From Luteitalea sp. TBR-22 (lineage in GTDB: Bacteria > Acidobacteriota > Vicinamibacteria > Vicinamibacterales > Vicinamibacteraceae): a stretch of DNA of 64,000 nt. The position numbers and the translations under genes are program-made. Positions 11,994-30,610 of the stretch are shown in pieces. The stretch lies in the NCBI RefSeq assembly GCF_016865485.1, contig NZ_AP024452.1, positions 766,501-830,500 on the forward strand, given 5' to 3'. Under the pieces are notes generated by a model. The model worked only from the letters and a program-made list of their open reading frames with translations, had not been told where the DNA came from and did not search any database. Within the stretch, counting starts at the first letter, position 1. Each line of letters starts with the position of its first letter.

Positions 11994-12438
11994 GGGTTCG
12001 TCCCCTCCGTGGTGCGGCGTCAGGCCTGCCGCGTCCACCTGGCGCCTGCAATTGCGAACACCATGCCAGCGTCCGTGTCATGTCCCAGCGACAGGTGCGT
12101 CGACCAACCCAACACCGAGAAAGCGCGGGTGACGGAGACGCACCGCTCTGCCGCTCGCCTTCGTGCTCGGGCTTCCGCTGCACGCTGCAATGTGCGATCG
12201 CTCGCACGCCAGCGTTGTTGATAGTGACGGTGCAAGAGCCACCGCTGCCATTCGGCCCTGCGCGGTGACGCAGGCCCGCCACCTCACTTCCACGCGCACG
12301 TCAGCCGGCCTGCTCCAGGCCGGTCGCCCCGACAAGGACGGGCCGGATCGCCATCGACCGCGATTCGGCAGGGACCGCTCGGAGAGCGGCCCTCGTCTGC
12401 CCACCACCGCGCGTACAGCCTTCCAGAGGATTGTTGCC
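11994..12438. other. Divergent intergenic region, 445 bases, no gene seen
   Basis: The spacer separates the minus-strand crystallin-like gene from the plus-strand metalloprotease gene, so it should hold both promoters. I see no recognisable small protein or RNA. The palindromic octamer GCGATCGC occurs near 12193. An in-frame extension of the plus-strand gene reaches to 12163 but has no ribosome binding site and low-complexity Arg-rich sequence, so it was left non-coding. Confidence 0.4.
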
Positions 12439-15165
12439 ATGGGTGTCGAAGCAGGGCGCGTCAACGGTTGGGTACTGATTCAAGGGCAACGTGCCCCTGG
12501 CAGGCCGGTGCGACTTCGCGTGACGGTCCCCGGCGAGGGCACGACGCTCGCCGAGGGCCTGTCGCTTCCCGACGGGCAGTTCGCGCTCGTCGTCCCGCCG
12601 GCGGCCGAGCGACCTGCGGTGGTGCAGCTCGAGGCGGTCGATCGATCCGGCGAGGTCCTGGCGCGACTCGAGACGCGCGGCGACCGGGCCGTCGTGCTCC
12701 CGCTCGAGCGCAGGCCACCGAACGAGGAAGACACCCCACCGTTGCTCACCGACGCCGTGACCGCCCTCGCCACGCAGGTGGCTCAGCTGGAGCAGGCAGG
12801 AGAACTGCCCACCGGTGCGCAGCAATGGCTGGCCGCCGCGGTGGGACGGCTGTCGTGGCTCGGCGCGCTCGTCGAGCCGGCGCGTCGCGCGATGCTCGGC
12901 GATCAGTCCGCCGCCGTTGTCGTGCGCGAGGCGCTCGGCGCCTGGGCGCGCGAGACGCCATGTACCGATGCATCCGCTGACGAGGTGCCAGGCGAGCAGG
13001 AGGAACCGCGTCGAGACGACGTGTCGGTGGTCGCGGAGACGCTGATCTCGGCAGACGCGGTGGGCACCCTCATGGCGTCGATTCTTTCCGTCGGCCGCTC
13101 CCTCGATGAACAGGTGGAGCTTGCCGAAGGTCTCGGCGCCGCGCTCTCCGTGCGCACGACGCTGGAGGCCCTCGCACGTGCGGCCTCGCTGGGCGACGTC
13201 CCCGTGATGTCGGTGATGATGGGCGCGCCCGGACCCATGCCGCTCGGCATGCCCGGTCTCGGCCTTCCCGGCGGCGGGCTCCCCGGTGGCGGGCTCCCGG
13301 GTGGCGGCTTCCCGGGTGGTGGCTTCCCCGGCGCGCCGGGCGGGCTCGGCGGCAGGCCGAAGGGGCCGTCGATCGTGCGGGTGCATCCGACGGTCGCCGA
13401 CGTCGTGGAACGCTTCCGGTCCGCCGATATGTTCCCGCCGTCGGACAAGCAGCGCTGCCTGATCTTCGCCGTCACCGAGGTCGCCCGACTGCAGGCCTCG
13501 TTTCCCGATTACCGCATCACCGCCCTGTCGCCAGCCGACGCGTGCCCGGGGCAGGAACTCACGATCACCGGCGTGCACTTCGGCACTCATGGCTCGGTGG
13601 TGTTCCCGGGCACGGCCGCGCCCATCACCAGCGCCGCCGCGATCGAATGGACCGACACGCGCATCCGCGTCACCATCCCGAGCGGAGCGGCTCCCGGCCT
13701 GATCACGCTGAGCATCCTCGAGGCGTCGTTCATGCGCTGCGGGCAGGTGTTCACCGTCTTCCGCCGGGGCGCCAGTGACGATGCGTTCGCGGGAGGCACT
13801 GCCGCGGTCACCGCCTTCCGGCTCGACGGCTCGAAGGATCCGCAGCGCGTCGAACCGGGCGCCGTCGTGTCGATCTCCTGCGACGTCACCGTGCATCCGA
13901 CCACGAGGACGCGCGTGTTCGTGACGCGGGACGGCACCACGCTCGCCGACTTCGGGACGCTGGTCGGCGGTGGTCACCGTCAGCACGACTTCACCGCGCC
14001 TGTCGTGACCCAGCCGGCCACCTGCATCGTCCACCTGCTCGTCGGCGGGCCGTGCGGAGAGGTCGACCACCTGCAGACGATCACCGTGGCGGCCAGGCCG
14101 CGCCTTGGCGTCGCGCACCTCGAGGTGACGCAGGGCGTGCAGGACGCCGCGCACACGGTGCAACTCGTGGAGGGCCGTACGACCGGCGTGCGCGCCTACC
14201 TGACCAGTGGTCTCGGCGCGTTCACTTATACCGGTGTGCCGGGCGAGGTGGCCGGCGTCACGGGCACGCTGCAGGTCGAGCGTGGCGGCGTGGTGGTGGC
14301 CTCGATTGCTCCGGCCGGTCCCGTGACGATCAACGCCGGTTTCGCCGACGTGGATCGATCCGGCACGGCGCACGCGCTGCTGTTCGTCGTGCCCGGCGCG
14401 CTGATGAGCGGCGACGTCACGATGCGGGTCACGGCTCGCGCGCCCGGGCTGCCGGGATTCGGCGCCGACACGCCGTCGGCGAGCGGGTCGCGCGTCGTGC
14501 GTGCCCGGCCCGCCGGCACGCTGACCGTGATCCAGTTGCGGATGGGCCTCACCAACCCCGCGCATCCGACCCCGGCCCCCAGCGACGCCGACTGGAAGTT
14601 CTCCGCCGTCGGCACGCAGGACCGCTATCCACTGGGCGACACCGACCTGTGGGTGGCGGTGCCGGCGACCGGCGACCTGCTGTCCACCGATCACTTCCTG
14701 GGCAAGAAGGGCGGATGGGAGGACGCGCTCGACGACCTCGACGACTACGCCGATCGCTACAACGAGTTCACGTTCATCTTCGCGTGCACGGTGCCGTCGG
14801 GGGCGTTCGCGCTCAACGGCATCTCGCACGCCGCCAACGATCGGCCCTGGCCGCTCGAGAACGATCGCCGCTGCTTCCTCTCGCAGTCGCGTCGGCGCGC
14901 GACGTTCGCCCACGAGATGGCGCACACCCTCGGCGTCGGGCACGCGCCGTGTGCCGACCCGGGGACGGACTTCCCCGAAGGCATCGACCCGAACCTCGGG
15001 CCGAACATCGGCGCCGGCGTGGTCGGGTGGAGGACGTCGGACGGCGCGCTGATGCCGCCCATGTGGGCCGAGCTCATGTCGTACTGCACCCCGGCCAACG
15101 GCATCTACGACGACCGGTGGCCGTCGATCGCCCTCTGGCACATCCTGATCGACCAGCTGAATTGA
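12439..15165 (+). CDS. Large metzincin-like metalloprotease with IPT/TIG domain, no signal peptide
   Basis: This 908-residue protein opens with a beta-rich domain (about 1-90, carboxypeptidase-regulatory-like), a helical region, a collagen-like GLPGGG/GFPGGG repeat (about 270-300) and an IPT/TIG domain (about 355-430, ITALSPADACPGQELTITG). After further beta-sandwich sequence the C-terminal domain has the zinc site HEMAHTLGVGH (H825, E826, H829, H835), the HExxHxxGxxH signature of metzincins, followed by a plausible Met-turn (AELMSYC). It should be a zinc endopeptidase. No Sec signal is visible, so it may be cytoplasmic, leave by another route, or act after lysis. The ATG at 12439 follows AGAGGA. 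An Ig-like protein is encoded 7 bases downstream. The substrate is unknown. Confidence 0.75.
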   Translation: MGVEAGRVNGWVLIQGQRAPGRPVRLRVTVPGEGTTLAEGLSLPDGQFALVVPPAAERPAVVQLEAVDRSGEVLARLETRGDRAVVLPLERRPPNEEDTPPLLTDAVTALATQVAQLEQAGELPTGAQQWLAAAVGRLSWLGALVEPARRAMLGDQSAAVVVREALGAWARETPCTDASADEVPGEQEEPRRDDVSVVAETLISADAVGTLMASILSVGRSLDEQVELAEGLGAALSVRTTLEALARAASLGDVPVMSVMMGAPGPMPLGMPGLGLPGGGLPGGGLPGGGFPGGGFPGAPGGLGGRPKGPSIVRVHPTVADVVERFRSADMFPPSDKQRCLIFAVTEVARLQASFPDYRITALSPADACPGQELTITGVHFGTHGSVVFPGTAAPITSAAAIEWTDTRIRVTIPSGAAPGLITLSILEASFMRCGQVFTVFRRGASDDAFAGGTAAVTAFRLDGSKDPQRVEPGAVVSISCDVTVHPTTRTRVFVTRDGTTLADFGTLVGGGHRQHDFTAPVVTQPATCIVHLLVGGPCGEVDHLQTITVAARPRLGVAHLEVTQGVQDAAHTVQLVEGRTTGVRAYLTSGLGAFTYTGVPGEVAGVTGTLQVERGGVVVASIAPAGPVTINAGFADVDRSGTAHALLFVVPGALMSGDVTMRVTARAPGLPGFGADTPSASGSRVVRARPAGTLTVIQLRMGLTNPAHPTPAPSDADWKFSAVGTQDRYPLGDTDLWVAVPATGDLLSTDHFLGKKGGWEDALDDLDDYADRYNEFTFIFACTVPSGAFALNGISHAANDRPWPLENDRRCFLSQSRRRATFAHEMAHTLGVGHAPCADPGTDFPEGIDPNLGPNIGAGVVGWRTSDGALMPPMWAELMSYCTPANGIYDDRWPSIALWHILIDQLN

Positions 15166-17267: not shown

Positions 17268-18857
17268 TCACTTGCGCGGACGCACCGGCCCGAACAGCAG
17301 GTCCTGGTAGTCGAAGCTGAAGTCGGCCAGGTCCGAGGTCGGCACCAGCTTCATCGTGTCGACCTTGCCCGTCTCGTCGAGCGCGAAGGTCACCAGCGCG
17401 TCGGGGATGGTGTCGTCGCGAAAGACGGCCTTGAACGTGTCGTACTGCCAGTGCTCCAGATCGGCCACGGCGGCCGGCGTGCGGGAGAGGCGCAGCACGA
17501 GGCGACCACTCTCGGTGGCAAGCGACGCGCCGCCGTACCACGCGTCGGCGTAGTTGCCGGCATAGCCGTCGAGCGACAGGGATGGCCGCGACGCGCGGTT
17601 GCGGGCGGCCGCCTGCTTCTGCTCCTCGTCGCGCGCCTTCTTCAACTGGTCGTCGCGCACCTGGCGGTACGCCGCGATCCAGTCGGTCGTCGGGGCGCCC
17701 AGGTACGCGTCGAGAATGTGATATCCGATCGCGCTGAAGGCGCCGCCCTCCTCCTGGTTGGTGAGTACGACAATGCCGAGGCCCTCGGACGGCACGAGCA
17801 TGACCAGCGTGACCATGCCGGTGAGGCCGCCGGTGTGCGACACGATCTTGCGGCCGCGATAGTCGCGCAGGTTCCAGCCGAGGCCGTAGCCGGCGAAGTT
17901 CGCCTTCGTGGCCGCCAGCGGCCCCGGCGGGTCGCTCACCCGGAGCGGCGTGGTCACCTGCCACATGTCGTCGGATACCCGCGGCGAGAACAGCTGCCGT
18001 GTCTCGTCGATCCGACCGCGCGCGAGCTGCACCCGCATCCACCTGGTCATGTCCTGCAGGTTCGACTTGATACCCGCCGCCGCGGCCCAAGTGTCGTCGC
18101 GCGTCGCCTGGATCGGCTTCAGCCTGCCCTCGAGGCGCCAGCCGCGGGAGTGGGGCGAGGCGACGTTGTCGGCCGGCGTGAGGCCGACGTTGCTGATGCG
18201 GCTGTCGTTCATCCCGAGCGGTACGAAGATCCGTTCGCGGATGACGTCGTCCCACGACTTGCCCGTCGCAGAGGCGATCACCTGGCCGGCGACCACGAAC
18301 ATCAGGTTGTTGTAGGCGTACCGGCTGCGGAAGCTCGAGGCCGGCGGAATGGACCGTGCCGCGGCCACGACCTGGTCACGTGACACGTCGGTGTCTGGCC
18401 AGAAGAGCAGGTCGCCGGCGCCGAGCCCGAGCCCGCTGCGATGACTGAGCGTGTCGCGGACGGTGATCTCGCGCGACGCGTACGGGTCGGCCATCGAGAA
18501 CCCGGGCAGGTGCTTGCCGACCGGATCGTCCCACGCGACCTTGCCCTCGTCGACAAGCATGCCGATCGCGGCAGCCGTGAAGGCCTTGGTATTCGACGCG
18601 ATGCCGAACAGCGTCCTGTCGTCCACCGGCGCGGGATCGCCGAGGCGACGCACGCCATACCCCTTCGCGTGCACCACCGTGCCGTCCTTGACGATGGCGA
18701 CGGCGATGCCGGGGACGTCGAAGGTGGTCATCGCCCGGGTGACCCAGGCGTCGAGATCGGCGGGCGGCGCCTGGGCGAACGCGCCGGCGGGGAAGACGCA
18801 GAGCGCGAGCAGAAGGGTGAGCAGATGGCGACGCTGGGCTCGTTCGAAGCAGCTCAT
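17268..18857 (-). CDS. Secreted serine hydrolase, beta-lactamase/class C family
   Basis: The 529-residue protein has a signal peptide (basic start, LLTLLLALCVFPAGAFA, cleavage near residue 29) and a class C beta-lactamase/penicillin-binding-type domain with S88-N-T-K91 (catalytic Ser and Lys), Y182-N-N184 (YxN) and SHTGG (third motif). A further domain of about 150 residues follows, of the type seen in secreted peptidases and esterases of this family (DUF3471-like). It probably hydrolyses D-amino-acid peptides or esters in the periplasm; substrate not predictable. I chose the ATG at 18857, giving a compact signal peptide, over one 11 codons upstream. Confidence 0.85.
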   Translation of the reverse strand: MSCFERAQRRHLLTLLLALCVFPAGAFAQAPPADLDAWVTRAMTTFDVPGIAVAIVKDGTVVHAKGYGVRRLGDPAPVDDRTLFGIASNTKAFTAAAIGMLVDEGKVAWDDPVGKHLPGFSMADPYASREITVRDTLSHRSGLGLGAGDLLFWPDTDVSRDQVVAAARSIPPASSFRSRYAYNNLMFVVAGQVIASATGKSWDDVIRERIFVPLGMNDSRISNVGLTPADNVASPHSRGWRLEGRLKPIQATRDDTWAAAAGIKSNLQDMTRWMRVQLARGRIDETRQLFSPRVSDDMWQVTTPLRVSDPPGPLAATKANFAGYGLGWNLRDYRGRKIVSHTGGLTGMVTLVMLVPSEGLGIVVLTNQEEGGAFSAIGYHILDAYLGAPTTDWIAAYRQVRDDQLKKARDEEQKQAAARNRASRPSLSLDGYAGNYADAWYGGASLATESGRLVLRLSRTPAAVADLEHWQYDTFKAVFRDDTIPDALVTFALDETGKVDTMKLVPTSDLADFSFDYQDLLFGPVRPRK

Positions 18858-18909
18858 GGGAGCCAACTCTAGCAGCAGGGCGCTGAACATCCGGAGCTCC
18901 GCACAGGGG

Positions 18910-20560: not shown

Positions 20561-22255
20561 ATGATGACCCGAGCCTGCCTGCGCCTGTCGCGCCTCGCCT
20601 GCGTTGCCGCCCTGCTGTCCCTGGCGGCGCCCCCCGCCGCGCGTGCCCAGCCCGCGCCCGCGGCGGCCCGCTTCGACGCCGTCCTTACCAAGGGCTTCAC
20701 CGCTGATCAGCCCGGCGCCGCCGTCATCGTCGTCAAGGACGGCGCGGTGGTCTACCGCAAGGCCGTGGGCATGGCGCACATGGAGCTCGGCGTGCCGCTG
20801 CAGCCAGACAGCGTGTTCCGCCTCGGCTCGATCACCAAGCAGTTCACGGCCGCGGCGGTGATGCTGCTGGTGGAGGACGGCAAGGTCGCGCTCAGCGATC
20901 CCGTGGAGAAGTACCTGCCCGGTTACCCGACGCAAGGCCACGTGATCACCGTGGAGCACCTGCTCACGCACACGTCGGGGATCAAGAGCTACACCTCGAT
21001 CCCCGGGTACTTCCCCAAGCGCATCCGCGCCGACCTGTCGCTCACCGAGCTGATCGACGGCTTCAAGCAGGAGCCGATGCAGTTCGCGCCCGGCCAGCGC
21101 TACGAGTACAACAACTCGGCCTACGTGATGCTCGGCGCAGTAATCGAGAAGGCTTCTGGCCAGCGCTACGAGGACTTCCTGCAGGCGCGCATCTTCGGCC
21201 CGCTCGGCATGACGCGGACGACGTTCGGCAGCAACGAACCGCTCATCAAGGGGCGCGTGCAGGGCTACACGCGCGACAAGGACGTGGTGAGGAATGCCGA
21301 CTTCCTGAGCATGACGCAGCCGCACGCGGCGGGCTCGCTCGTGTCGTCGGTGGACGATCTGGCGAAGTGGGACGCGGCGCTGACGGCCGGGAAGGTCCTG
21401 AAGCCCGCATCGCTGGAGAAGATGGCCACACCGTACACCCTGAAGGACGGCACGAGCACGGGGTACGGCTATGGGCTGCAGGTCGACACGCTGCGCGGGC
21501 GCGCGACGCTGGAGCACGCCGGCGGCATCCCCGGGTTCTCCACGTATGCGATCCGGGTGCCGAAGGATCGGGTGTACGTCGCCGTGCTGGCCAACAGCGA
21601 CAGGCCGACGGCCTCACCCGAGACGATGGCCCGCCGCATGGCCGCCCTGGCCCTGGGCGACCCGTTCCCCGAGCGCACGGCGATCACGGTGGCTCCCGAG
21701 GTGCTGGCGCGGTACGCGGGGGTGTACGAGGCGAAGCAGGGGCGCCGCACGGTGATCGCGGAGGGCGGCAAGCTCTACACGCTGCGCGGCGGCGAGCGCG
21801 TCGAGGCGCGGCCGTTCTCGCCCACCGAGTTCTTCTTCGACGACGACCTCACGACGCTGAAGTTCGAGGTCGGGGCCGATGGACGGGCCACGACGCTGTT
21901 GCGGTACGTCAGCGGCAGCGACACGCCGGAGCGCGCCGAGCGGACCGCCGATGCGCCGTCGGCCCCACCGGCGGCTGCGGGCGGGAACGTCCGCGTCGAT
22001 CCGGCCATCTACGACACGTACGTCGGCGACTACGAGCTCGCCCCGAACTTCATCCTCACTGTGAGCCGCTCGGGCGATCGCCTGATGACGCAGGCCACCG
22101 GCCAGCAGCAGATCGAGATCTTCCCGCTGTCGGAGACCGAGTTCGCGCCGAAGGTCGTCGAGGCCCGCATCACGTTCGTGAAGGGGCCCGACGGGAAGGT
22201 CACGCAACTCGTGCTGAAGCAGAACGGCCGCGACATGGTGGCTCGCCGCAAGTAG
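20561..22255 (+). CDS. Secreted serine hydrolase, beta-lactamase family
   Basis: The 564-residue protein has a signal peptide (ACVAALLSLAAPPAARA, cleavage near residue 29) and a class C beta-lactamase-type domain with S90-I-T-K93, Y183-N-N185 and HAGG motifs, all intact. Two C-terminal lipocalin-like/DUF3471 domains follow (about 365-455 and 470-564), a usual arrangement in acidobacterial serine hydrolases. It is about 35 residues longer than, and only distantly similar to, the hydrolase ending at 17268. It probably cleaves peptides or esters in the periplasm. GGAG precedes two consecutive ATGs; either may be used. It converges on a methyltransferase with a hairpin between. Confidence 0.85.
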   Translation: MMTRACLRLSRLACVAALLSLAAPPAARAQPAPAAARFDAVLTKGFTADQPGAAVIVVKDGAVVYRKAVGMAHMELGVPLQPDSVFRLGSITKQFTAAAVMLLVEDGKVALSDPVEKYLPGYPTQGHVITVEHLLTHTSGIKSYTSIPGYFPKRIRADLSLTELIDGFKQEPMQFAPGQRYEYNNSAYVMLGAVIEKASGQRYEDFLQARIFGPLGMTRTTFGSNEPLIKGRVQGYTRDKDVVRNADFLSMTQPHAAGSLVSSVDDLAKWDAALTAGKVLKPASLEKMATPYTLKDGTSTGYGYGLQVDTLRGRATLEHAGGIPGFSTYAIRVPKDRVYVAVLANSDRPTASPETMARRMAALALGDPFPERTAITVAPEVLARYAGVYEAKQGRRTVIAEGGKLYTLRGGERVEARPFSPTEFFFDDDLTTLKFEVGADGRATTLLRYVSGSDTPERAERTADAPSAPPAAAGGNVRVDPAIYDTYVGDYELAPNFILTVSRSGDRLMTQATGQQQIEIFPLSETEFAPKVVEARITFVKGPDGKVTQLVLKQNGRDMVARRK

Positions 22256-23849: not shown

Positions 23850-24626
23850 ATGATCCGAGACACAGCCGACCTGTCCCAGCTGGAGCGCGAGTTCGAGCTC
23901 GAGATGGACGACGACCCGACAGGCGGGCTCGAGATGGAACTCGAGGCCGACGATGGCGAGCTCGACGATGGCGCGGCGCCGACGTCCTACGAAGCCGGTG
24001 ACGACGCGACGGAGGGCTTCGCGGAGCGGTTCCACGAGCTGTCGCAGGGGTCTTACGAGTCCGAGCACGAGCTCGACCAGGACGTGAACCGCCTCGTGGC
24101 AGAGATGGAGCAGGAGTTCTTCTTCAAGAACATCGGCGCGCGCTTGCGGCGCGCCGGCAAGGGGCTGTTGCGCAAGGGGTTGAAGGCTGCCGCGGGGCGC
24201 ATTCCGGCGCTCAAGGCGCTGCAATCGGTGACGCAGCTTGCGCGGGGCAACCTCAAGGGCATGCTCGCCTCGCTCGCCAAGGCTGGCCTCGCGAGCGCCA
24301 TCCCGGGCGGCGCTGTCGCACTCCCGGCGCTGCAGGCACTCGGGTTCGAAGCCGAAACGGGCGCCGATGATCGTGAGGCGTGGCGCACCTACGGCGAAGT
24401 CTCCCGGGAGGCCTTCGAGCACCTCGCCGAACACCTGCACGAGCAGGCCGATACACCGGCGGAGGCCAGCCGCCTGGCCGCGGCGGCGCTGCAGGCCGGG
24501 CTCGCCAACGCGCAGGCCCGCACCCGGCGGCACCGTCGTCGTCGGTCCGGCGCGGGTGCGACAGGTGGCGGCACGCGCGTCATCCGGCTGCGGCGCGGCG
24601 AGCGCCTGGTGGTCACCGTCGAGTGA
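23850..24626 (+). CDS. Protein with acidic leader and cationic amphipathic core, first gene of a five-gene cluster
   Basis: The 258-residue protein falls into three parts. Residues 1-70 are strongly acidic and repetitive (LEREFELEMDDD at 11-22, LEMELEADDGELDD). Residues about 95-170 are cationic and amphipathic with Gly/Ala/Leu-rich helices (GARLRRAGKGLLRKGLKAA), resembling membrane-active peptides. The C-terminal part has more helices and an Arg-rich cluster (RTRRHRRRR) ending in beta-like GTRVIRLRRGERLVVTV. No family, signal peptide or enzyme motif is recognised. The start follows CAGGAG at 8 bases. It begins a same-strand run of genes with gaps of 19, 29, 27 and overlap, so it is probably in one operon with the proteases downstream. 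Confidence 0.6.
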   Translation: MIRDTADLSQLEREFELEMDDDPTGGLEMELEADDGELDDGAAPTSYEAGDDATEGFAERFHELSQGSYESEHELDQDVNRLVAEMEQEFFFKNIGARLRRAGKGLLRKGLKAAAGRIPALKALQSVTQLARGNLKGMLASLAKAGLASAIPGGAVALPALQALGFEAETGADDREAWRTYGEVSREAFEHLAEHLHEQADTPAEASRLAAAALQAGLANAQARTRRHRRRRSGAGATGGGTRVIRLRRGERLVVTVE

Positions 24627-24645: not shown

Positions 24646-25977
24646 ATGACCGGTCACGCACAGGACCTGACCCGGCGCTACGCGTCCGCGCTGCGGCGGA
24701 TCGGCAGCCTGACGAACCTCCGACGGCTCGTCGGCCTGCCTGCGGACCGCGACATCACGCCGCGGCAATGGGAAGTGATCGACGCCCAGCTGGCCACGGC
24801 AGCCGAGCGACTGTCGGCACGCGTGAAGGCCGCGGGGCGTGCCTACCTGCCCACCGCGCACGAGCCTGCCTCGGCGCGACGCATGAACGCGATGCTCGGG
24901 GAACTCGAGCTCGATCTCGCCGAGACGTTCGGCTTCTTCGACGCGTGCATGGACGTGTTGACGCAGCGGCACGCCCCGAACCTCGGGCCGCTGCTGGCCG
25001 GATGCGACGCGCTCGCGCGCGAGTCCCTTCACAAGCCCCACGCCGCCCTCCGCATCGTCGAGCCGCCGCTCGTGTACTGCGACCGCGGGTTCGGCGCGTC
25101 GACGTTGCGCGAAGGGGTGCGCCTGCGTCACGGCATCCCCAACCCGTTGCCGCTCGTGCAGATCCCGTACTCGCGCCTCGTGGAGAAGTGCACGCTGACG
25201 TCGATCCTCCATGAGGTGGGGCACGAGGTGCTGGTGAGGCTGGGCCTGGTGGCCGTGCTGCCGGTCGCCGTGCGCGCCGCCCTCACTCACGCCCGCGCCC
25301 CGCGCCAGGTGTGCGACTACTTCCCGCTGTGGACGTCCGAGATCGGCCCGGACTTCTGGACCTTCTGCGACGCCGGCCTGGCGTCGGCGGCCGCGATCCA
25401 GGACATCCTCGCGCTTCGCCCCGACGACGTGTTGCGCGTGTCGGGCACCGACCCGCATCCGCCTCCGTACCTGCGCGTCCTGCTCGTGTTCGAGTGGTGT
25501 CGGCAGGCCTGGGGCCGCGGGCCGTGGGACGCGTGGGAGGCCCGCTGGCGCGAACTCTACGACCCCGCCGACGCCACGCCGTCGGCCCGGCTGCTGTTGC
25601 ACGCAGCGCTGCCGTACCTGCCCGTCGTGGCGCGCACGTTCTTCACCACTCGTTTCCGCGTGCTCGAGGGGCGCAGGCTGCCCGACCTCTTCGCCCTCGA
25701 CGCGCTCGCGCCGGCGCGGCTGGCCCCGCTCGTCGAGCGGCGCGAGGGCGACGCGTTCCGGGCGCTTCCTGCCGCGGCGCAGCTGGCCGTGTTCCGCCTG
25801 GCGAGCGAGCAGGGCCTGCCCGACACGCGACTCGACGCGGAGATGACGGCATGGCTGGTGGCGCTCGGCCGACCTGCCGACGCGCTCCCGACGGCGTCCC
25901 TCACCACGCCTCGACGACGGCAGCCCCCGCCGCTGGTCGTCCAGGCCCAGGACCGACGAGGCGCTGGCCTGCACTGA
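24646..25977 (+). CDS. HExxH-containing putative metallopeptidase, unknown family
   Basis: The 443-residue protein carries HEVGH (H189, E190, H193) in a helix (SILHEVGHEVLVRLGL), the minimal zincin motif; a third ligand is not obvious, although SEIGPDFWTF about 50 residues later offers a Glu in gluzincin-like spacing. The N-terminal part is helical with GELELDLAE segments, and the C-terminal tail is Pro/Arg-rich. There is no signal peptide. It is the second gene of the 23850-29440 cluster, 19 bases after the acidic/cationic protein. A cytoplasmic or non-classically released protease is the best guess. Confidence 0.6.
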   Translation: MTGHAQDLTRRYASALRRIGSLTNLRRLVGLPADRDITPRQWEVIDAQLATAAERLSARVKAAGRAYLPTAHEPASARRMNAMLGELELDLAETFGFFDACMDVLTQRHAPNLGPLLAGCDALARESLHKPHAALRIVEPPLVYCDRGFGASTLREGVRLRHGIPNPLPLVQIPYSRLVEKCTLTSILHEVGHEVLVRLGLVAVLPVAVRAALTHARAPRQVCDYFPLWTSEIGPDFWTFCDAGLASAAAIQDILALRPDDVLRVSGTDPHPPPYLRVLLVFEWCRQAWGRGPWDAWEARWRELYDPADATPSARLLLHAALPYLPVVARTFFTTRFRVLEGRRLPDLFALDALAPARLAPLVERREGDAFRALPAAAQLAVFRLASEQGLPDTRLDAEMTAWLVALGRPADALPTASLTTPRRRQPPPLVVQAQDRRGAGLH

Positions 25978-26006: not shown

Positions 26007-27419
26007 ATGGCCAACAAGGAGTCACGAGAAACGCCCGGCACGGCGAACCCCGCACAGGCTGGCGCATCGTCACCCGAACAGGCGCTGCCGTATGGCGACC
26101 TGGCGCGGTTGATCCGCGAGCTCGCGCAACAGGGAGGTTTCCCGGTGGCGCTGTCGGCGACGCGCCTGCCGCCCGTGGATACGGGCGCGCGGCTCCGGCA
26201 GCGACTGCGGCGCAGCATCGTGTTCCCGCCCTGCGCCGACACGTTGCTGGGCCTGGTGCGCACCGCCGATACCGACGAAGTGACGGCCGACTTCAAGGAC
26301 TACTTCACGTTCGCCCGCCATGTCACGTTCGGGCAGTTCACCAATGCCGCTGGCGCGCCCGAGGACCTCACGACGCAGCTCGGCACGACGCTCGACCCGA
26401 CGCTTGCCTCCTGCGGGCAGGCCGGGCCGTTCTCGACGCAGTCGCACGGCGGCGCGTCGTGGCCGAGCGACTGTTGCGTGTGCACGCCCTGCGTGACGCT
26501 CGACGGCATCCGCAACACCGACGGCACGCGCCCGGGTATCCGCCGCCTGTTCATCGGCGACCTTGTGTGGCTCTTCTACATGGAACGGCTCGGCCTGTTC
26601 CAGATCCTCGGCGCCATCCTCGACGCGTTCGCCTACAGCGGACGCCTGCCGATCTCCAATGGCGCGCTCGACGCCGACGGGGTTGCCGACGACGTCACGG
26701 CGCTGATCCTGGAGGTGATGGTGCGGGAGACGCGGTCGGGGCAGTCGTCGACCGTCCGGGATCGCCTGGCGGCCTACAGGACGTGCCTGGCGTGGACGAC
26801 GGAGGGCGGTCGGAAGCTGGATCTCGACACGCAGGTGAACGGCGCGTTCACGACGCTCTTCCACAAGTTCATCTACCACGCGCTCGAGTTCTACAAGGAC
26901 CGTCGTCTCGCCGTCGCGATCCAGGGCACGGCTGCGGGCTCCACGCCACCGTCGGCGGCCACCCTCATCACGCTGAGCGACACCATCGAGGTGCTCAAGA
27001 ACCGCTTCGAGGCCTTCGACTACGGCCGCAATGCCGTCAACGCACTCGGCGGCCTGGTGTGGGCGATCAGCGCGATGACGATCATCCGGGCGCTGCGCAC
27101 CACGATCGGCATCCCGGAGGCGTTCAACCAGCCGCACGAGTACATCCCCGCGGCCTACGACATCCTGGTGTTGAAGCGCGCGGTCACCCACGGGGACGCC
27201 AACCGCTACCTGATTCACCGGGAGTGCGCCCGGAGCGGTCGCGACATCCTGCTCGACATGGAGGTCGTCGACCACACGTCGCGCAGCGCCGGAGGCGAGC
27301 TCGAACGGTGGATCACGCAGATCGAATCGCGCGTCGAGGCGTACCGCACCGCCTACCGGAACATGACGGGCGTGGACATCGGCGCGAGCGCCACGCCGGC
27401 AATCGAGCAGCAGGCCTGA
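26007..27419 (+). CDS. Hypothetical 470-residue protein of the protease cluster
   Basis: No family is recognised. The protein begins with a polar stretch of about 25 residues, then helices; a Cys cluster CCVCTPC lies near residue 155, and long amphipathic helices rich in aromatic residues follow (LFYMERLGLFQILGAIL; HKFIYHALEFYKD). A moderately hydrophobic segment (LGGLVWAISAMTIIRAL, about 350) may be buried rather than membrane-spanning. No signal peptide. The ATG at 26007 follows AGGAGAGCGAG; a longer frame upstream overlaps the previous gene and was rejected. It is the middle gene of the cluster and could be a scaffold or toxin; the sequence gives no decisive clue. Confidence 0.6.
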   Translation: MANKESRETPGTANPAQAGASSPEQALPYGDLARLIRELAQQGGFPVALSATRLPPVDTGARLRQRLRRSIVFPPCADTLLGLVRTADTDEVTADFKDYFTFARHVTFGQFTNAAGAPEDLTTQLGTTLDPTLASCGQAGPFSTQSHGGASWPSDCCVCTPCVTLDGIRNTDGTRPGIRRLFIGDLVWLFYMERLGLFQILGAILDAFAYSGRLPISNGALDADGVADDVTALILEVMVRETRSGQSSTVRDRLAAYRTCLAWTTEGGRKLDLDTQVNGAFTTLFHKFIYHALEFYKDRRLAVAIQGTAAGSTPPSAATLITLSDTIEVLKNRFEAFDYGRNAVNALGGLVWAISAMTIIRALRTTIGIPEAFNQPHEYIPAAYDILVLKRAVTHGDANRYLIHRECARSGRDILLDMEVVDHTSRSAGGELERWITQIESRVEAYRTAYRNMTGVDIGASATPAIEQQA

Positions 27420-27446: not shown

Positions 27447-28319
27447 GTGGTCATCGCGGAGCGACGCAGGTTCGAAGCGGAACTGGCCGACCTCGAGGTC
27501 TTCCCACCAGACAGGCGTGCGCGGGTACCCCCTGCGCAGACACTGGCGATTCCCAACCGGTGGATCTGCCGGCTGACCGCGCCGGACATCGACGCGACCG
27601 CCGGGTCGTACGGCATGGGCACGGGCGTGTTGATCGGCCCACGCCACGTCCTGACCGCGGCGCACGTCCTGGTCTCGGTGCAGGACCAGAGGCGGACGGT
27701 GGGCGATCGCCTGCGCGTGCAGATCGCTCGCAACGGTGAGACGGCGCCGTTTGCGCCAGTGGGCATCCGCGGCTGGCGGGTGAACCCGCGCTGGGTGCGG
27801 GCAATCCAGCAGCCGGCGGCGAACGGCCGCCCGGCGCGGACGCGATGGATCCTGCAGCCCCAGCACGACTACGGGCTGGTGACGCTCGACCGGGACGTGT
27901 CGTCGTGGCCCATCGGGCCCTGCACGCTGGGTCATTGGGGCGCGGCGGGTCCCTGCGCCAACGGCGCCTTCATCGGCATGGCGCCTGCCGACGTTCAAGG
28001 CCAGCAGGCAGTCGTCACCGGGTATCCCGGCGACAAGGGGGGCACCGCGTTGTGGACGGCGGGCGGGCCGATCAGCCTGGAACCCCGGCTCGGCACGCTC
28101 CTGCACACGATCGACACCTGCCCCGGTCAGAGCGGGGCACCCGTCTGGGCGATGCAAGGCGATCGCTGCCAGTTGATCGGTGTGCATTCCGGTGCGAACG
28201 GGCGTTGGACCACCGACGCGAACCACCGGCAGGTACTCTCGCACAACGGCGCGGCCCTGTTGTCGCCTGCCGTGGTCCAGCAACTGCGCCTGTGGATGGG
28301 CACGTCCGCGAGGCCCTGA
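27447..28319 (+). CDS. Trypsin-like serine protease with N-terminal ELADLE tag
   Basis: This 290-residue protein is a chymotrypsin-fold protease with complete triad: H73 (TAAHVL), D141 (HDYGLV) and S229 (PGQSGAPVW), as in glutamyl-endopeptidase-like bacterial enzymes (S1B). No signal peptide is present. Instead residues 8-18 read RFEAELADLEV, which matches 10 of 11 positions of the unrelated hydrolase encoded next (RFEQELADLEV, residues 6-16). A shared tag on two unrelated enzymes suggests a common destination or partner. The GTG start follows GAGG, and the stop overlaps the next ATG (ATGA-type TGATG), so the two enzymes are made together. Confidence 0.8.
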   Translation: MVIAERRRFEAELADLEVFPPDRRARVPPAQTLAIPNRWICRLTAPDIDATAGSYGMGTGVLIGPRHVLTAAHVLVSVQDQRRTVGDRLRVQIARNGETAPFAPVGIRGWRVNPRWVRAIQQPAANGRPARTRWILQPQHDYGLVTLDRDVSSWPIGPCTLGHWGAAGPCANGAFIGMAPADVQGQQAVVTGYPGDKGGTALWTAGGPISLEPRLGTLLHTIDTCPGQSGAPVWAMQGDRCQLIGVHSGANGRWTTDANHRQVLSHNGAALLSPAVVQQLRLWMGTSARP

Positions 28320-29440
28320 TGCGCACGCGCGGCAGGTTCGAGCAGGAGCTGGCCGATCTCGAGGTGCCGAGCCGTGCGCCCATCACGGTGACCCACTTCC
28401 ATGTGCGCAAGGCGATCGACCCGAGCATTCGCGCGTTGATGCCCGACCCGTCACCCGGTGCGATGACGCCGGCCCGCATGGCGCCCGGATACGTGCTGCC
28501 GTCGGATGCGCGGCGCCGCCAGTTGCAGGATGCCCTCGACGCGTTGCTGCGCGCGTCGTACGCCGACGGCCTGGCCCCGCCGGTGCACCTGCGGGTGGGC
28601 CTGGTCGATCTCACGGGCGTGCGCTACCACGCGCCGGTGTTCGCCGGGCACTGGGCATGGGGCGGGAGTGCGGCGCTGGAGGCGGGCAGTCTTGCCAAGA
28701 TCCTGCCGCTCTACGCGCTGTACCAACTGCGCTTCGACCTCGACACGACCGCCGCGCAGCAGGGCATCACGACCGGCAAGGCGCTGCTCGCGTTCATGAA
28801 AGCTGAGTGGAAGCGCCAGGGGCTCGTCGATGCCCCCGACGTGCCGGCGCTGTTCACGTTCGCCGGGCGTTCCGGCGACCCCGTGGTCGCCAGACTCCGG
28901 CAGGTGCACGACGTGCACCACAATCACGTCGCCCGGAACCTCATCGTGATGCTCGGCTTCCCGTACATCGGGTCGGTGGCGCTGCAGTCCGGACTCTTCG
29001 ACCCCGCGCACGGTGGACTGTGGCTCAACGCGGCGTACAACGAGCCCGCGCTCACGTGGACGACGAGTCCGTTCCCGAAGCAGCACCGGCACAACGCGAC
29101 GGCGCTGGCGACCGCCACGTACTTCACGCTGCTCGCCCAGGGCCGCCTGGTGAACGAGGCCACCTCGGCAGAGATCCGCAAGGTGCTCGGGATGCGGCTG
29201 TGCATGGGCAACGGCCCGCTCGACGGCATCCGCGGGCTCGGCGGCGCCGTGAACCCCGTTGCCAACAAGTGCGGGTTGTTGAAGCCCTTCTACCACGAGG
29301 GCTGCCACGTCATCCGCCGTGCTTCCGGGGGGCGCACGCTCTCGTATGCCCTGGCCATGCTCACCAAGCGGCCGCCGAACCTCGATCTCAAGGAACTCGG
29401 GCGGAACATCGACGCGCTGGTGGACGCCGCCAACCCGTGA
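28319..29440 (+). CDS. SxxK serine hydrolase (class A beta-lactamase-like) with N-terminal ELADLE tag
   Basis: The 373-residue protein has S124-L-A-K127 in the context LEAGSLAKILPLYALYQL, as in class A beta-lactamase and D,D-peptidase folds, and a later GCHVIRRASGGRTLSYALAM segment that corresponds to the KTG strand region in modified form (RASGG). It lacks a signal peptide. It starts with the tag RFEQELADLEV (residues 6-16), nearly identical to that of the protease encoded directly upstream, whose stop its ATG overlaps. It probably acts on peptide-like bonds, perhaps peptidoglycan; substrate unknown. It is the last gene of the cluster and converges on the sulfotransferase across a period-7 repeat region. 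Confidence 0.7.
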   Translation: MRTRGRFEQELADLEVPSRAPITVTHFHVRKAIDPSIRALMPDPSPGAMTPARMAPGYVLPSDARRRQLQDALDALLRASYADGLAPPVHLRVGLVDLTGVRYHAPVFAGHWAWGGSAALEAGSLAKILPLYALYQLRFDLDTTAAQQGITTGKALLAFMKAEWKRQGLVDAPDVPALFTFAGRSGDPVVARLRQVHDVHHNHVARNLIVMLGFPYIGSVALQSGLFDPAHGGLWLNAAYNEPALTWTTSPFPKQHRHNATALATATYFTLLAQGRLVNEATSAEIRKVLGMRLCMGNGPLDGIRGLGGAVNPVANKCGLLKPFYHEGCHVIRRASGGRTLSYALAMLTKRPPNLDLKELGRNIDALVDAANP

Positions 29441-29470
29441 GGGGAGATGCCTTCGCCGTCCCTGACGGAA

Positions 29471-29675
29471 CCAAGGGACGAGGGACGAGCGACCAGTCAC
29501 AAGGGAGGCGAGGGACAAGGGAACGGGACGACCAGAGACGAGGGAAGAGACGGGCCGTTCGCGACGTCCGGCGGTTCCGACGAGCGCCAGACTGTTCCCT
29601 GGTCCCGACGCGTCCTTGTCCCAGTCCCTTGCCGTCCTGGTGACTTGCGTCCCTGTCCCTTGTCCCTGGTTCTGC
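29471..29675. repeat. Period-7 degenerate repeat region with complementary arms
   Basis: The 5' part (29471-29553) is purine-rich with units such as AGGGACG-AGGGACG-AGCGACC-AGTCACA. The 3' part (about 29594-29675) is the pyrimidine counterpart with CTGTCCC-TTGTCCC-TGGTTCT. The arms are roughly complementary and could fold into a long imperfect hairpin between two convergent genes. No coding potential is seen in the 261-base spacer. Confidence 0.65.
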
Positions 29676-29701
29676 CGGGAACGGGACCATGCCGTGTCCG
29701 G

Positions 29702-30610
29702 TCACACGATGCGCCAGACGACGACGTCGCCGGTGCGTGCGACGCACGCGCACTGGCGCTCAAGGGCGTCCATCAGCGCCGGGTACGTCCCGGTGAACCA
29801 GAAGGCCGGCCATCCCAGCACGAAGTACTCGAGGCCTTCCGCGCGCGCTCGTGCCAGTTCCTCGCAGGCGTGTGCGTCGTCTGCCGGCGGACCCCAGTAC
29901 GTCCCGTCGCGCTGCGTGAAGGGCACCGGTGTGCGGTCGGGCGCGAAGTCCCGACCGAAGGCATCGAGGTCGGCGAGCACGAACCGGGCACCCTCGGGGA
30001 TGCAACCGAGGATGGTCCTTTGCGCCGCGAGCCAGCGGTGCATCCATTCGTTGGCGTGAGGGAAAGGCACGGGCGGATTCGGCGTCGGTACGCCGAGGAA
30101 CGGGCACAGCGCGTCCCAACCGTCGCCTGCCGCCACGTCCATCACGAGGAGGTCATCGGGCCGGCCGGCGAAGTAGGCGAGCACGCCGGCGCGATGCTGC
30201 GCATACGCGCGCGCGAAGCGATCGCGATCGAACTCCACCGCGCCGTACACCACCCCGCTGATGAACTCCTGGAAGCGGCGGAAGTCTTCGGCGCGCTGCC
30301 ACCAGTCCATCATCAGCTGCCAGTGCAACTCCACCGAGCGCAGCCAGGCGCCCTCTTCCCGCACCGTGAGGATGAACTTGCTGCCCGGGTAGGCCGCGTC
30401 CAGCTGCGCGTAGTACGGCGCCACGGGGATGTCGACGGCGGCGTCGTAGGACGCCATCACCGTCAACGAGGTGCAACCCGCGCGCAGTTCGCGCAGCGTC
30501 GTCGCATCGGACGGGTAGTGGATCGTACGGATGCCGAGCAGGGTGAGCGCCTCGGCGAGGCTAGAGGTGCCGGTCTTGCTCAGGCCGAGGCCGAACACCT
30601 TGCGATTCAC
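29702..30610 (-). CDS. Sulfotransferase-family protein with C-terminal accessory domain
   Basis: This 302-residue protein begins with the PAPS 5'-phosphosulfate loop GLGLSKTGTSSL (7-18) and the ILTVREEGAWLRS segment that corresponds to the 3'-phosphate-binding motif, as in the Sulfotransfer_4 family. The last about 95 residues (FVLADLDAFGRDF to the end) do not belong to the sulfotransferase core and resemble small domains appended to glycan-modifying enzymes. It would transfer sulfate from PAPS to a hydroxyl, perhaps on the product of the neighbouring glycan genes. The GTG at 30610 overlaps the stop of the GT4 gene (GTGA) and follows GGGAG. Confidence 0.75.
   Translation of the reverse strand: MNRKVFGLGLSKTGTSSLAEALTLLGIRTIHYPSDATTLRELRAGCTSLTVMASYDAAVDIPVAPYYAQLDAAYPGSKFILTVREEGAWLRSVELHWQLMMDWWQRAEDFRRFQEFISGVVYGAVEFDRDRFARAYAQHRAGVLAYFAGRPDDLLVMDVAAGDGWDALCPFLGVPTPNPPVPFPHANEWMHRWLAAQRTILGCIPEGARFVLADLDAFGRDFAPDRTPVPFTQRDGTYWGPPADDAHACEELARARAEGLEYFVLGWPAFWFTGTYPALMDALERQCACVARTGDVVVWRIV

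What the first reader, a model, noticed from the sequence alone, without database searches (positions are those of the whole stretch)
27447..29440. Shared N-terminal 11-residue tag on two unrelated leaderless hydrolases
A trypsin-like protease (R8-F-E-A-E-L-A-D-L-E-V18) and an SxxK hydrolase (R6-F-E-Q-E-L-A-D-L-E-V16) begin with nearly the same peptide, 10 of 11 positions, though their folds differ. The first gene of the same cluster has a related acidic stretch (LEREFELEMDD). Neither enzyme has a signal peptide, and their genes overlap (TGATG). The tag looks like a docking, sorting or packaging signal for a shared carrier. An alternative is a fragment left by recent gene duplication or fusion; the lack of similarity elsewhere argues against this. 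No carrier (contractile injection system, encapsulin, T6SS) is visible in the window.
Basis: partly seen in the sequence, partly recalled or inferred. Interest (0 to 1): 0.75.

Follow-up and report, generated by a model that had tools for sequence, protein, structure and literature searches.

The report
Shared address tag on enzyme cassette
Unrelated enzymes in distantly related bacteria begin with the same short peptide when their genes follow one particular trio of uncharacterised genes, which suggests that the peptide is an address that hands interchangeable enzymes to a common, still unknown, machine.

Summary
The shared peptide is real and is not limited to these two genes. It lies behind a three-gene core (ORF1-3) that matches no named family; ORF2 bears a zinc-peptidase signature. 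I found seven loci with this core, in Acidobacteriota and Bacteroidota. Nine relatives of the same enzymes beside more distant cores lack the motif, and in one fusion the tag stays at the N-terminus although the enzyme domain starts 240 residues later. So it is a portable N-terminal module that goes with this core, not with an enzyme family. The complete home genome has no contractile sheath of either family tested. Most likely the tag docks leaderless hydrolases on the ORF1-3 proteins; binding is inferred, and what follows (storage, export, regulated release) is unknown. New variant of a known kind: N-terminal sorting modules of polymorphic effectors.

The parts
23850..24626 (+). ORF1, 258 aa: acidic N-terminal region, conserved middle (ELSxxxFESE..EMEQEFFF), hydrophobic Gly/Ala-rich stretch, basic tail; first core gene
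   Evidence: The gene before ORF2 in 7 of 7 near-type loci, 32-49% identical; no match in Pfam or NCBIfam at E<=1, PADLOC or PHROGs at E<=0.1
23880..23912 (+). LEREFELEMDD stretch of ORF1 (residues 11-21), partly tag-like (FELE)
   Evidence: S[EQ][LM]Exx[FYL]ELE in ORF1 of the 7 loci; lacks the L at +7 of the client tag
24646..25977 (+). ORF2, 443 aa: predicted zinc peptidase with an N-terminal three-helix bundle; second core gene
   Evidence: H189, E190, H193 (HExxH), E232, D236 and H271 invariant in 22 aligned sequences; model pLDDT 90.5; residues 112-407 resemble BepA (M48), Z 8.0, 146 aligned, rmsd 4.0
25210..25224 (+). HExxH motif of ORF2 (H189-H193)
   Evidence: invariant over 22 sequences
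26007..27419 (+). ORF3, 470 aa: all-alpha protein of unknown fold; third core gene
   Evidence: 40-57% identical in the 7 near-type loci; model pLDDT 59.3, no clear structural match
27447..28319 (+). ORF4, trypsin-like peptidase, tagged client 1
   Evidence: PF13365 E 1.4e-11; homologue L096:8805-9653, 26% identical, also tagged
27468..27500 (+). N-terminal tag RFEAELADLEV of ORF4 (R8-V18)
28319..29440 (+). ORF5, SxxK-type protein (S124-K127), tagged client 2
   Evidence: 37% identical to part of L096:9692-11623, where the motif is S363-K366, and 36% to an untagged relative in L098; no family above cut-off
28334..28366 (+). N-terminal tag RFEQELADLEV of ORF5 (R6-V16)

Best explanation
The window holds a five-gene run made of a conserved core (ORF1, ORF2, ORF3) and two interchangeable clients. 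Each client enzyme is made without a recognisable signal peptide and carries a short N-terminal address, R-F-E-x-E-(L/I/M)-x-x-L. The spacing F1, hydrophobic 5, L8 would put three hydrophobic residues on one face of a short helix, with acidic residues around them. This address docks the enzyme on a core protein encoded next to it, so that an enzyme that acquires the tag becomes a client. Shown: the tag is a portable module, it goes with this core and not with the enzyme family, and the clients differ from locus to locus. Inferred: that the tag binds a core protein. Guessed: that the receptor is ORF2 (its N-terminal three-helix bundle carries two arginines, R26 and R40, that are invariant where the tag occurs and nearly always absent where it does not) or ORF3, that the ORF2 zinc peptidase then trims or releases the clients, and that the purpose is regulated deployment of lytic enzymes.
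For: Seven loci with ORF1-ORF2-ORF3 in the same order, from two phyla; the gene after ORF3 is tagged in 7 of 7, with 1 to 4 tagged genes each, 11 in all. F1, E4 and L8 are present in 11 of 11; F..E...L is found in 0 of 536 background N-termini and nowhere in 4605 interior residues of the same proteins (the motif was read off the same 11, so this is descriptive). Apart from the first 25 residues the 11 proteins fall into 8 groups without similarity; Pfam names trypsin, OmpA, PG_binding/Amidase_2/SLT and PG_binding/M74. In L096:9692-11623 the SxxK domain starts about 240 residues later than in the window while the tag is still at residues 5-15. Nine relatives of the trypsin, SxxK and PG-binding clients beside distant ORF2 homologues lack the motif in their first 60 residues, 0 of 9. 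Conserved tag residues use different codons. ORF2 R26: 7 of 7 near-type, 1 of 15 distant; R40: 7 of 7 and 0 of 15.
Against: No binding was or could be tested. The hydrophobic moment of the tag does not exceed shuffles in any of 11 (L095 is out of register there), so the helix is a reading of the spacing only. ORF1 shares only FELE with the tag, and not in all loci. Other ORF2 residues (E86, E88, F97) are also near-type only, so R26 and R40 may mark the subfamily rather than a binding site. The ORF2 helix-bundle match is of a very common kind. The set is small: 7 loci, 11 proteins. Tagged proteins were collected by position after ORF3, and tags elsewhere in the six other genomes were not searched.
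Confidence: 0.62

Rival explanations
1. The tag is an export or particle-loading signal: the core proteins form a new secretion route or particle that carries the leaderless enzymes out of the cell to attack other cells.
For: Of the 5 clients with a Pfam match above the cut-off, 3 carry domains that bind or cut peptidoglycan (OmpA; PG_binding/Amidase_2/SLT; PG_binding/M74) and 2 are trypsins, activities mostly at work outside the cytoplasm (general knowledge), yet none has a strongly hydrophobic N-terminus. In known systems N-terminal peptides or domains load such cargo (PMC11495950, start of abstract in a listing; PMC10435454, abstract).
Against: By eye, no membrane channel, secretion ATPase, sheath or shell gene recurs among the neighbours printed for the seven loci; the complete home genome lacks both sheath families. 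ORF1-3 have no strongly hydrophobic N-terminus.
Confidence: 0.25
2. The tag is a self-associating peptide that gathers the enzymes into an intracellular condensate or store, as encapsulation peptides of microcompartments do; the core is scaffold and processing enzyme.
For: Short terminal peptide on unrelated enzymes, as described for encapsulation peptides (PMC12339742, passages). ORF1 is acidic and low in complexity at its N-terminus and shares FELE in 4 of 7 loci.
Against: Encapsulation peptides are typically 18 residues and amphipathic; the tag is shorter and its hydrophobic moment does not exceed shuffles. ORF1-3 match no Pfam family, so no known shell protein.
Confidence: 0.2
3. The shared N-terminus is only a scar of gene birth: client genes were inserted behind a common 5' gene end, and the peptide has no function.
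For: In the window the two tags are also similar in DNA (27 of 33 bases over R-V, counted), and the genes lie in tandem.
Against: The peptide recurs in two phyla while its codons differ; in the four-client locus L096 the tags have diverged but keep F1, E4 and L8.
Confidence: 0.08
4. The resemblance of the two window proteins is chance or part of a homologous domain.
For: None found.
Confidence: 0.01

Closest known systems
Effector-associated domains (EADs) of bacterial conflict systems (PMC7159879; sections 30 and 31 and passages read)
   Same: One small module is shared by unrelated effectors (trypsins and peptidoglycan-attacking domains among them) encoded near a core, and is proposed to couple them to that core
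   Different: EADs are small domains and one copy is fused to a core component; here the shared part is about 11 residues, the resemblance in ORF1 is only partial, and ORF1-3 match no Pfam family, so none of the vWA/MoxR/VMAP/GTPase components
RIX domain of polymorphic T6SS effectors (PMC10435454, abstract and outline)
   Same: N-terminal module found on proteins with diverse toxic domains, necessary and sufficient for sorting
   Different: RIX is an arginine-rich domain, widespread in Vibrionaceae and tied to T6SS; here the tag is short and acidic and the home genome has no T6SS sheath match
Encapsulation peptides of bacterial microcompartments (PMC12339742, passages)
   Same: Short terminal peptide, linker, unrelated cargo enzymes
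   Different: Longer (typically 18 residues) and amphipathic; belongs to a shelled organelle, of which nothing is in the cluster
N-terminal loading peptides of the Photorhabdus virulence cassette (PMC11495950, listing with the start of the abstract)
   Same: N-terminal signal on payloads of one delivery device
   Different: An extracellular contractile injection system; the home genome has no match to the sheath family
M48 zinc peptidases such as BepA (6sar, 6ait)
   Same: ORF2 residues 112-407 align (6sar: Z 8.0, 146 residues, rmsd 4.0); HExxH plus a later Glu
   Different: No Pfam M48 match; a Z of 8 is near the level of common arrangements; whether the HExxH motifs superpose was not seen

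Membership tests
EAD-coupled conflict system | the same module is fused to a core component and to effectors | tested here: inconclusive
   ORF1 has FELE near its N-terminus in 4 of 7 loci (Y or L for F in the other 3) but not the full F..E...L motif
EAD-coupled conflict system | module is a small domain | tested here: not met
   Similarity among unrelated clients is confined to about 11-16 N-terminal residues
EAD-coupled conflict system | core with vWA/MoxR/VMAP, iSTAND or GTPase components | tested here: not met
   No Pfam match at E<=1 for ORF1-3; no PADLOC match at E<=0.1 for ORF1-3
T6SS effector with N-terminal sorting domain (RIX type) | a T6SS in the genome | tested here: not met
   PF05943: no match in complete G000; present in 3 of 7 near-type genomes
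eCIS payload | contractile sheath in the genome | tested here: not met
   PF04984: no match in complete G000; present in 2 of 7 near-type genomes
Microcompartment cargo (encapsulation peptide) | BMC shell proteins in the genome | not tested
   No such match in the five cluster genes or nine neighbouring genes scanned; the genome was not searched (cap reached)
Encapsulin cargo | encapsulin shell protein in the genome | not tested
   Only the cluster and nine neighbouring genes were scanned
Zinc peptidase (gluzincin) | HExxH with a downstream Glu ligand | tested here: met
   H189, E190, H193 and E232 invariant in 22 of 22; metal binding and the role of E232 not tested
M48 peptidase family | sequence match to the family | tested here: inconclusive
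   No Pfam match; structural match to BepA Z 8.0
Serine beta-lactamase / DD-peptidase superfamily (ORF5) | SxxK plus family profile match | tested here: inconclusive
   SxxK present and kept in the L096 homologue; PF13354 at 12.2 bits, below the cut-off of 22; no PDB sequence match at E<=1
Sec/Tat secreted enzyme | N-terminal signal peptide | tested here: not met
   Crude hydrophobicity scan only: best 12-residue mean in the first 45 residues is below 1.0 in 10 of 11 clients; L096 client 3 reaches 2.0

The most novel reading that the evidence does not exclude
ORF1, ORF2 and ORF3 are a new machine for deploying leaderless lytic enzymes: a portable N-terminal address of about 12 residues makes any enzyme its client, and the zinc peptidase ORF2 reads or removes the address. 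More distant relatives of ORF2, beside other acidic, repeat-rich ORF1-like proteins and some of the same enzyme families, would then be sister systems with different addresses, that is, a whole class of tag-addressed polymorphic enzyme systems.
Probability: 0.3. Interest if true: 0.9.

Novelty: new variant of a known kind. Interest (0 to 1): 0.7.

Why it matters
If the tag is an address, it predicts clients directly from sequence and offers a small, transferable peptide that recruits enzymes to a three-protein core without a known secretion or packaging apparatus. It gives three protein families with no annotation a common, testable role, and may explain why enzymes that attack peptidoglycan and proteins are made without signal peptides in these bacteria.

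Tried and rejected
Contractile injection carriers: both sheath families were searched in the seven near-type genomes; neither is in the complete home genome. Two genomes have the first family and three the second, four of seven have at least one, so they do not go with the tag.

Viral or plasmid origin: no relatives of ORF2 or ORF3 in viral contigs at that sensitivity; only distant ORF2 homologues on plasmids, 6 of 72,556 records. No PHROG match for ORF1-3.

Fold of ORF3: the model is poor (pLDDT 59.3). Foldseek gave no match at E<=0.001 in PDB or BFVD. The aligner's best rows reach Z 4.0 and include several alpha-pore-forming toxins (AhlB, SmhB, XaxB, the Bacillus cereus hemolysin component, MakA); with that Z and that model I give it no weight. 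Foldseek also gave nothing at E<=0.001 for ORF2, nor did sequence profiles find an ORF2 relative in the PDB (best E 0.071, interleukin-10, over the helical N-terminal part).

Amphipathic helix by hydrophobic moment: does not exceed shuffles (5% level) in any of 11, so the claim was reduced to the F1/5/8 spacing. In that table L095 was aligned on the wrong F.

A general acidic-tag rule for distant loci (19 loci with ORF2 selected): 4 of 60 downstream ORFs and 6 of 202 others have 12 or more D/E in the first 40 residues; all 6 of the latter are ORF1-like proteins upstream of ORF2, so setting them aside it is 4 of 60 against 0 of 196. That is suggestive, but most downstream genes are not acidic. 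A [SN]P[FY] motif shared by the ORF1-like protein and a downstream gene is seen in L049, L098 and L099 only; in L082, L100, L103 and L104 only the ORF1-like protein has it, and 11 of 159 background ORFs have one copy.

Strict pattern across the phylum as a way to find clients: 7 places outside the window, none a convincing N-terminus. L032 is an internal stretch of a 507-residue protein.

Literature: searches gave nothing relevant; some searches gave the analogues named. No paper on this gene trio was seen in those six searches, a weak statement because the families have no names to search for.
Full report
What is there. The window lies in a genome of a single 6.47 Mb contig. It is an acidobacterium: G307, of the same phylum, holds a contig of the same length as the record titled Pyrinomonadaceae, and that family is in Acidobacteriota. 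Five genes on the + strand form a tight run: ORF1 23850-24626, ORF2 24646-25977, ORF3 26007-27419, ORF4 27447-28319 and ORF5 28319-29440, with gaps of 19, 29 and 27 bases and a one-base overlap. ORF4 is a trypsin-like peptidase (PF13365, E 1.4e-11). ORF5 has an SxxK motif and only a sub-threshold beta-lactamase match. ORF1-3 match nothing in Pfam or NCBIfam at E<=1, nor in PADLOC or PHROGs at E<=0.1.

Is it only in this window? A scan of the genome collection with ORF1 gave two relatives, one from a Pyrinomonadaceae MAG and one from a Phaeodactylibacter MAG, a bacteroidete. Both hold ORF1, ORF2 and ORF3 in the same order (ORF2 48-53%, ORF3 46-48% identical to the window), followed by one gene, unrelated to ORF4 and ORF5, that starts MRERLRFESEIGLLL or MKETSRFSREFEILL. 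Searching an ORF2 profile in sampled genomes gave 5 of 396 in the home phylum (E<=1e-10), and at E<=1e-6 7 of 395 in the phylum of the bacteroidete, 7 of 258 in its order, 3 of 98 and 6 of 119 in the orders of two other carriers, and 1 of 149 in the home order, that one being the home genome; four genomes of its own genus and two more of its family have no match (the sets overlap). The matches are of two kinds. Seven loci score above 580 bits (near type: window, L041, L042, L076, L095, L096, L097). The others score about 35-181 bits (distant type).

The seven near-type loci all have ORF1, ORF2 and ORF3 in this order, and in 7 of 7 the next gene carries the tag. L096 has four tagged genes in a row: MKERNRFEHEIADLEF, MQERTRFEHERLNLDV, MERSRFDAEMKDLAV and MRQRTRFESESSYLRL. 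L076 has MRHESWFEREIADLQI, L095 MRERFSFEREMRDLGI, L097 MRERQRFERELQALEL. Over the 11 tagged proteins F1, E4 and L8 are invariant; position 2 is E in 9 (D, S once each), position 5 is hydrophobic in 9 (R, S once each) and the residue before F is R in 9 (W, S once each). F is at residue 6 to 9. Where another gene on the same strand follows the tagged one (L042, L076, L095), it lacks the motif.

How strong is it? With at most 3 of its 8 fixed positions wrong it fits 10 of 11 tagged proteins (the exception, L042, has 4), 1 of 508 background ORFs from the fetched loci (3 of 508 if their first 40 residues are used), and 0 of 178 interior blocks of the tagged proteins. Two of the 11 are the window proteins that gave the pattern. 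The refined motif F..E...L is in 11 of 11 against 0 of 536 background N-termini and no place in 4605 interior residues, but it was read from the same 11. In the home genome 40 places match the DNA for FExE[L/F]; I looked at the 38 others and none looks like the N-terminus of a real gene.

Portable module or homologous domain? Without the first 25 residues the 11 proteins fall into 8 groups. The only links at E<0.01 are the trypsins (26% identical), the SxxK proteins (37%) and a PG-binding repeat in L042 and L095. Pfam names trypsin, OmpA, PG_binding/Amidase_2/SLT and PG_binding/M74; L076, L097 and three of the four L096 clients match nothing at E<=0.1. In L096:9692-11623 the SxxK part starts at about residue 266 but at about residue 26 in the window, while the tag sits at residues 5-15 and 6-16: the two proteins differ by some 240 residues between tag and enzyme domain. 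Conversely, nine ORFs in distant-type loci are relatives of the trypsin, SxxK or PG-binding clients, one of them 36% identical to ORF5 over 353 residues, and none has the motif in its first 60 residues. The tag therefore follows the type of core and not the type of enzyme. Codons for the conserved residues differ between loci (TTC/TTT, GAA/GAG), so the constraint is on the peptide.

The core. ORF2 has HExxH, E232, D236 and H271 invariant in 22 aligned sequences and a confident model (pLDDT 90.5) with an N-terminal three-helix bundle and a second part that aligns with the M48 peptidase BepA (Z 8.0, 146 residues, rmsd 4.0). I take it as a zinc peptidase; the family is not settled. In helix 1 and at the start of helix 2, R26 and R40 are present in 7 of 7 near-type proteins and in 1 and 0 of 15 distant ones; E86, E88 and F97 are also near-type only. 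That is the pattern expected of a site that reads an acidic tag, but it is equally what any subfamily shows. ORF3 is predicted all-alpha, without a known fold. ORF1 is acidic and repetitive at its N-terminus; its LSELExEFELEMDD shares FELE with the tag in 4 of 7 loci but not L8.

What is the carrier? The home genome is complete and has no match to the phage/eCIS sheath or the T6SS sheath family; of the seven genomes two have the first and three the second. By eye, no other gene recurs among the neighbours printed for the seven loci, except that in the three Pyrinomonadaceae-type loci (L041, L096, L097) a winged-helix regulator (my reading) lies shortly upstream on the other strand. Microcompartment shells and encapsulins were not searched in whole genomes. 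The simplest receptor is thus one of ORF1-3.

How it probably works. The clients lack signal peptides by a crude scan, though some have domains that act on peptidoglycan. I think the tag docks them on the core, which keeps, processes or passes them on; this is inference. The closest described principle is the effector-associated domain, proposed to couple effectors, trypsins and peptidoglycan-attacking domains among them, to a core (PMC7159879, sections 30 and 31 and passages), but that is a domain with other core proteins. Encapsulation peptides (PMC12339742, passages) and N-terminal sorting domains of secreted effectors (PMC10435454, abstract) are the other precedents. I rate this a new variant of a known kind: a shared N-terminal module is a known principle, while the peptide, the core families and the combination were not found under any name in the libraries and searches used.

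Limits. Seven loci, no experiment; some carriers are draft genomes (two are 75% and 86% complete); start codons were chosen by reading frame (ORF4 and one L096 client start with GTG); the function of the system remains a guess.

Noticed in passing
L049-L056, L077-L082, L098-L104: A broad distant-type family: ORF2 homologues (21-27% identical to the window's in the 15 aligned), many behind acidic, repeat-rich ORF1-like proteins (several starting MH[ND][IL]DRT), with neighbours that I read as an NtrC-like regulator, a PLP enzyme, a metal-dependent hydrolase, an M20-like peptidase and trypsins; CHAT proteins are annotated in L056. Some lie on large plasmids of Rhizobium, Ensifer, Paraburkholderia and Bradyrhizobium.
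   Followed up: partly
L100:14590-15369 and L080:15754-16992: A second possible tag: a trypsin-like protein starting MRDLIDEILEMDD and another protein starting MQYLIDEIIDTG in two distant-type loci.
   Followed up: no
L098 (reverse strand, three genes after the ORF3 relative): Three consecutive genes begin MKQDPFLFESE, MRDLFIIKAEP and (at an internal start) MKNQFIFEVNP, perhaps a third tag class; the last is a relative of ORF5 (36% identical).
   Followed up: partly
L049:11655-13880, L099:12387-13847: A downstream gene and the ORF1-like protein of the same locus share SPF/SPY motifs, as if the motif of the client follows that of the local ORF1.
   Followed up: partly
window 29447-29720: Intergenic stretch behind ORF5 with GGGACAAGGG-like repeats and an inverted copy (CCCTTGTCCC).
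   Followed up: no
window 17268-18890 (-) and 20561-22255 (+): Two PF00144 serine hydrolases with DUF3471 on either side of an apiosidase-like gene.
   Followed up: no
window 12391-15165: 924-residue protein with a TIG domain and an HEMAHTLGVGH metalloprotease-like motif, followed by an unmatched 284-residue gene.
   Followed up: no
L096:9692-11623: The part of this client between tag and SxxK domain has its own HExxH motif at residue 182, so it may be a two-enzyme fusion.
   Followed up: partly
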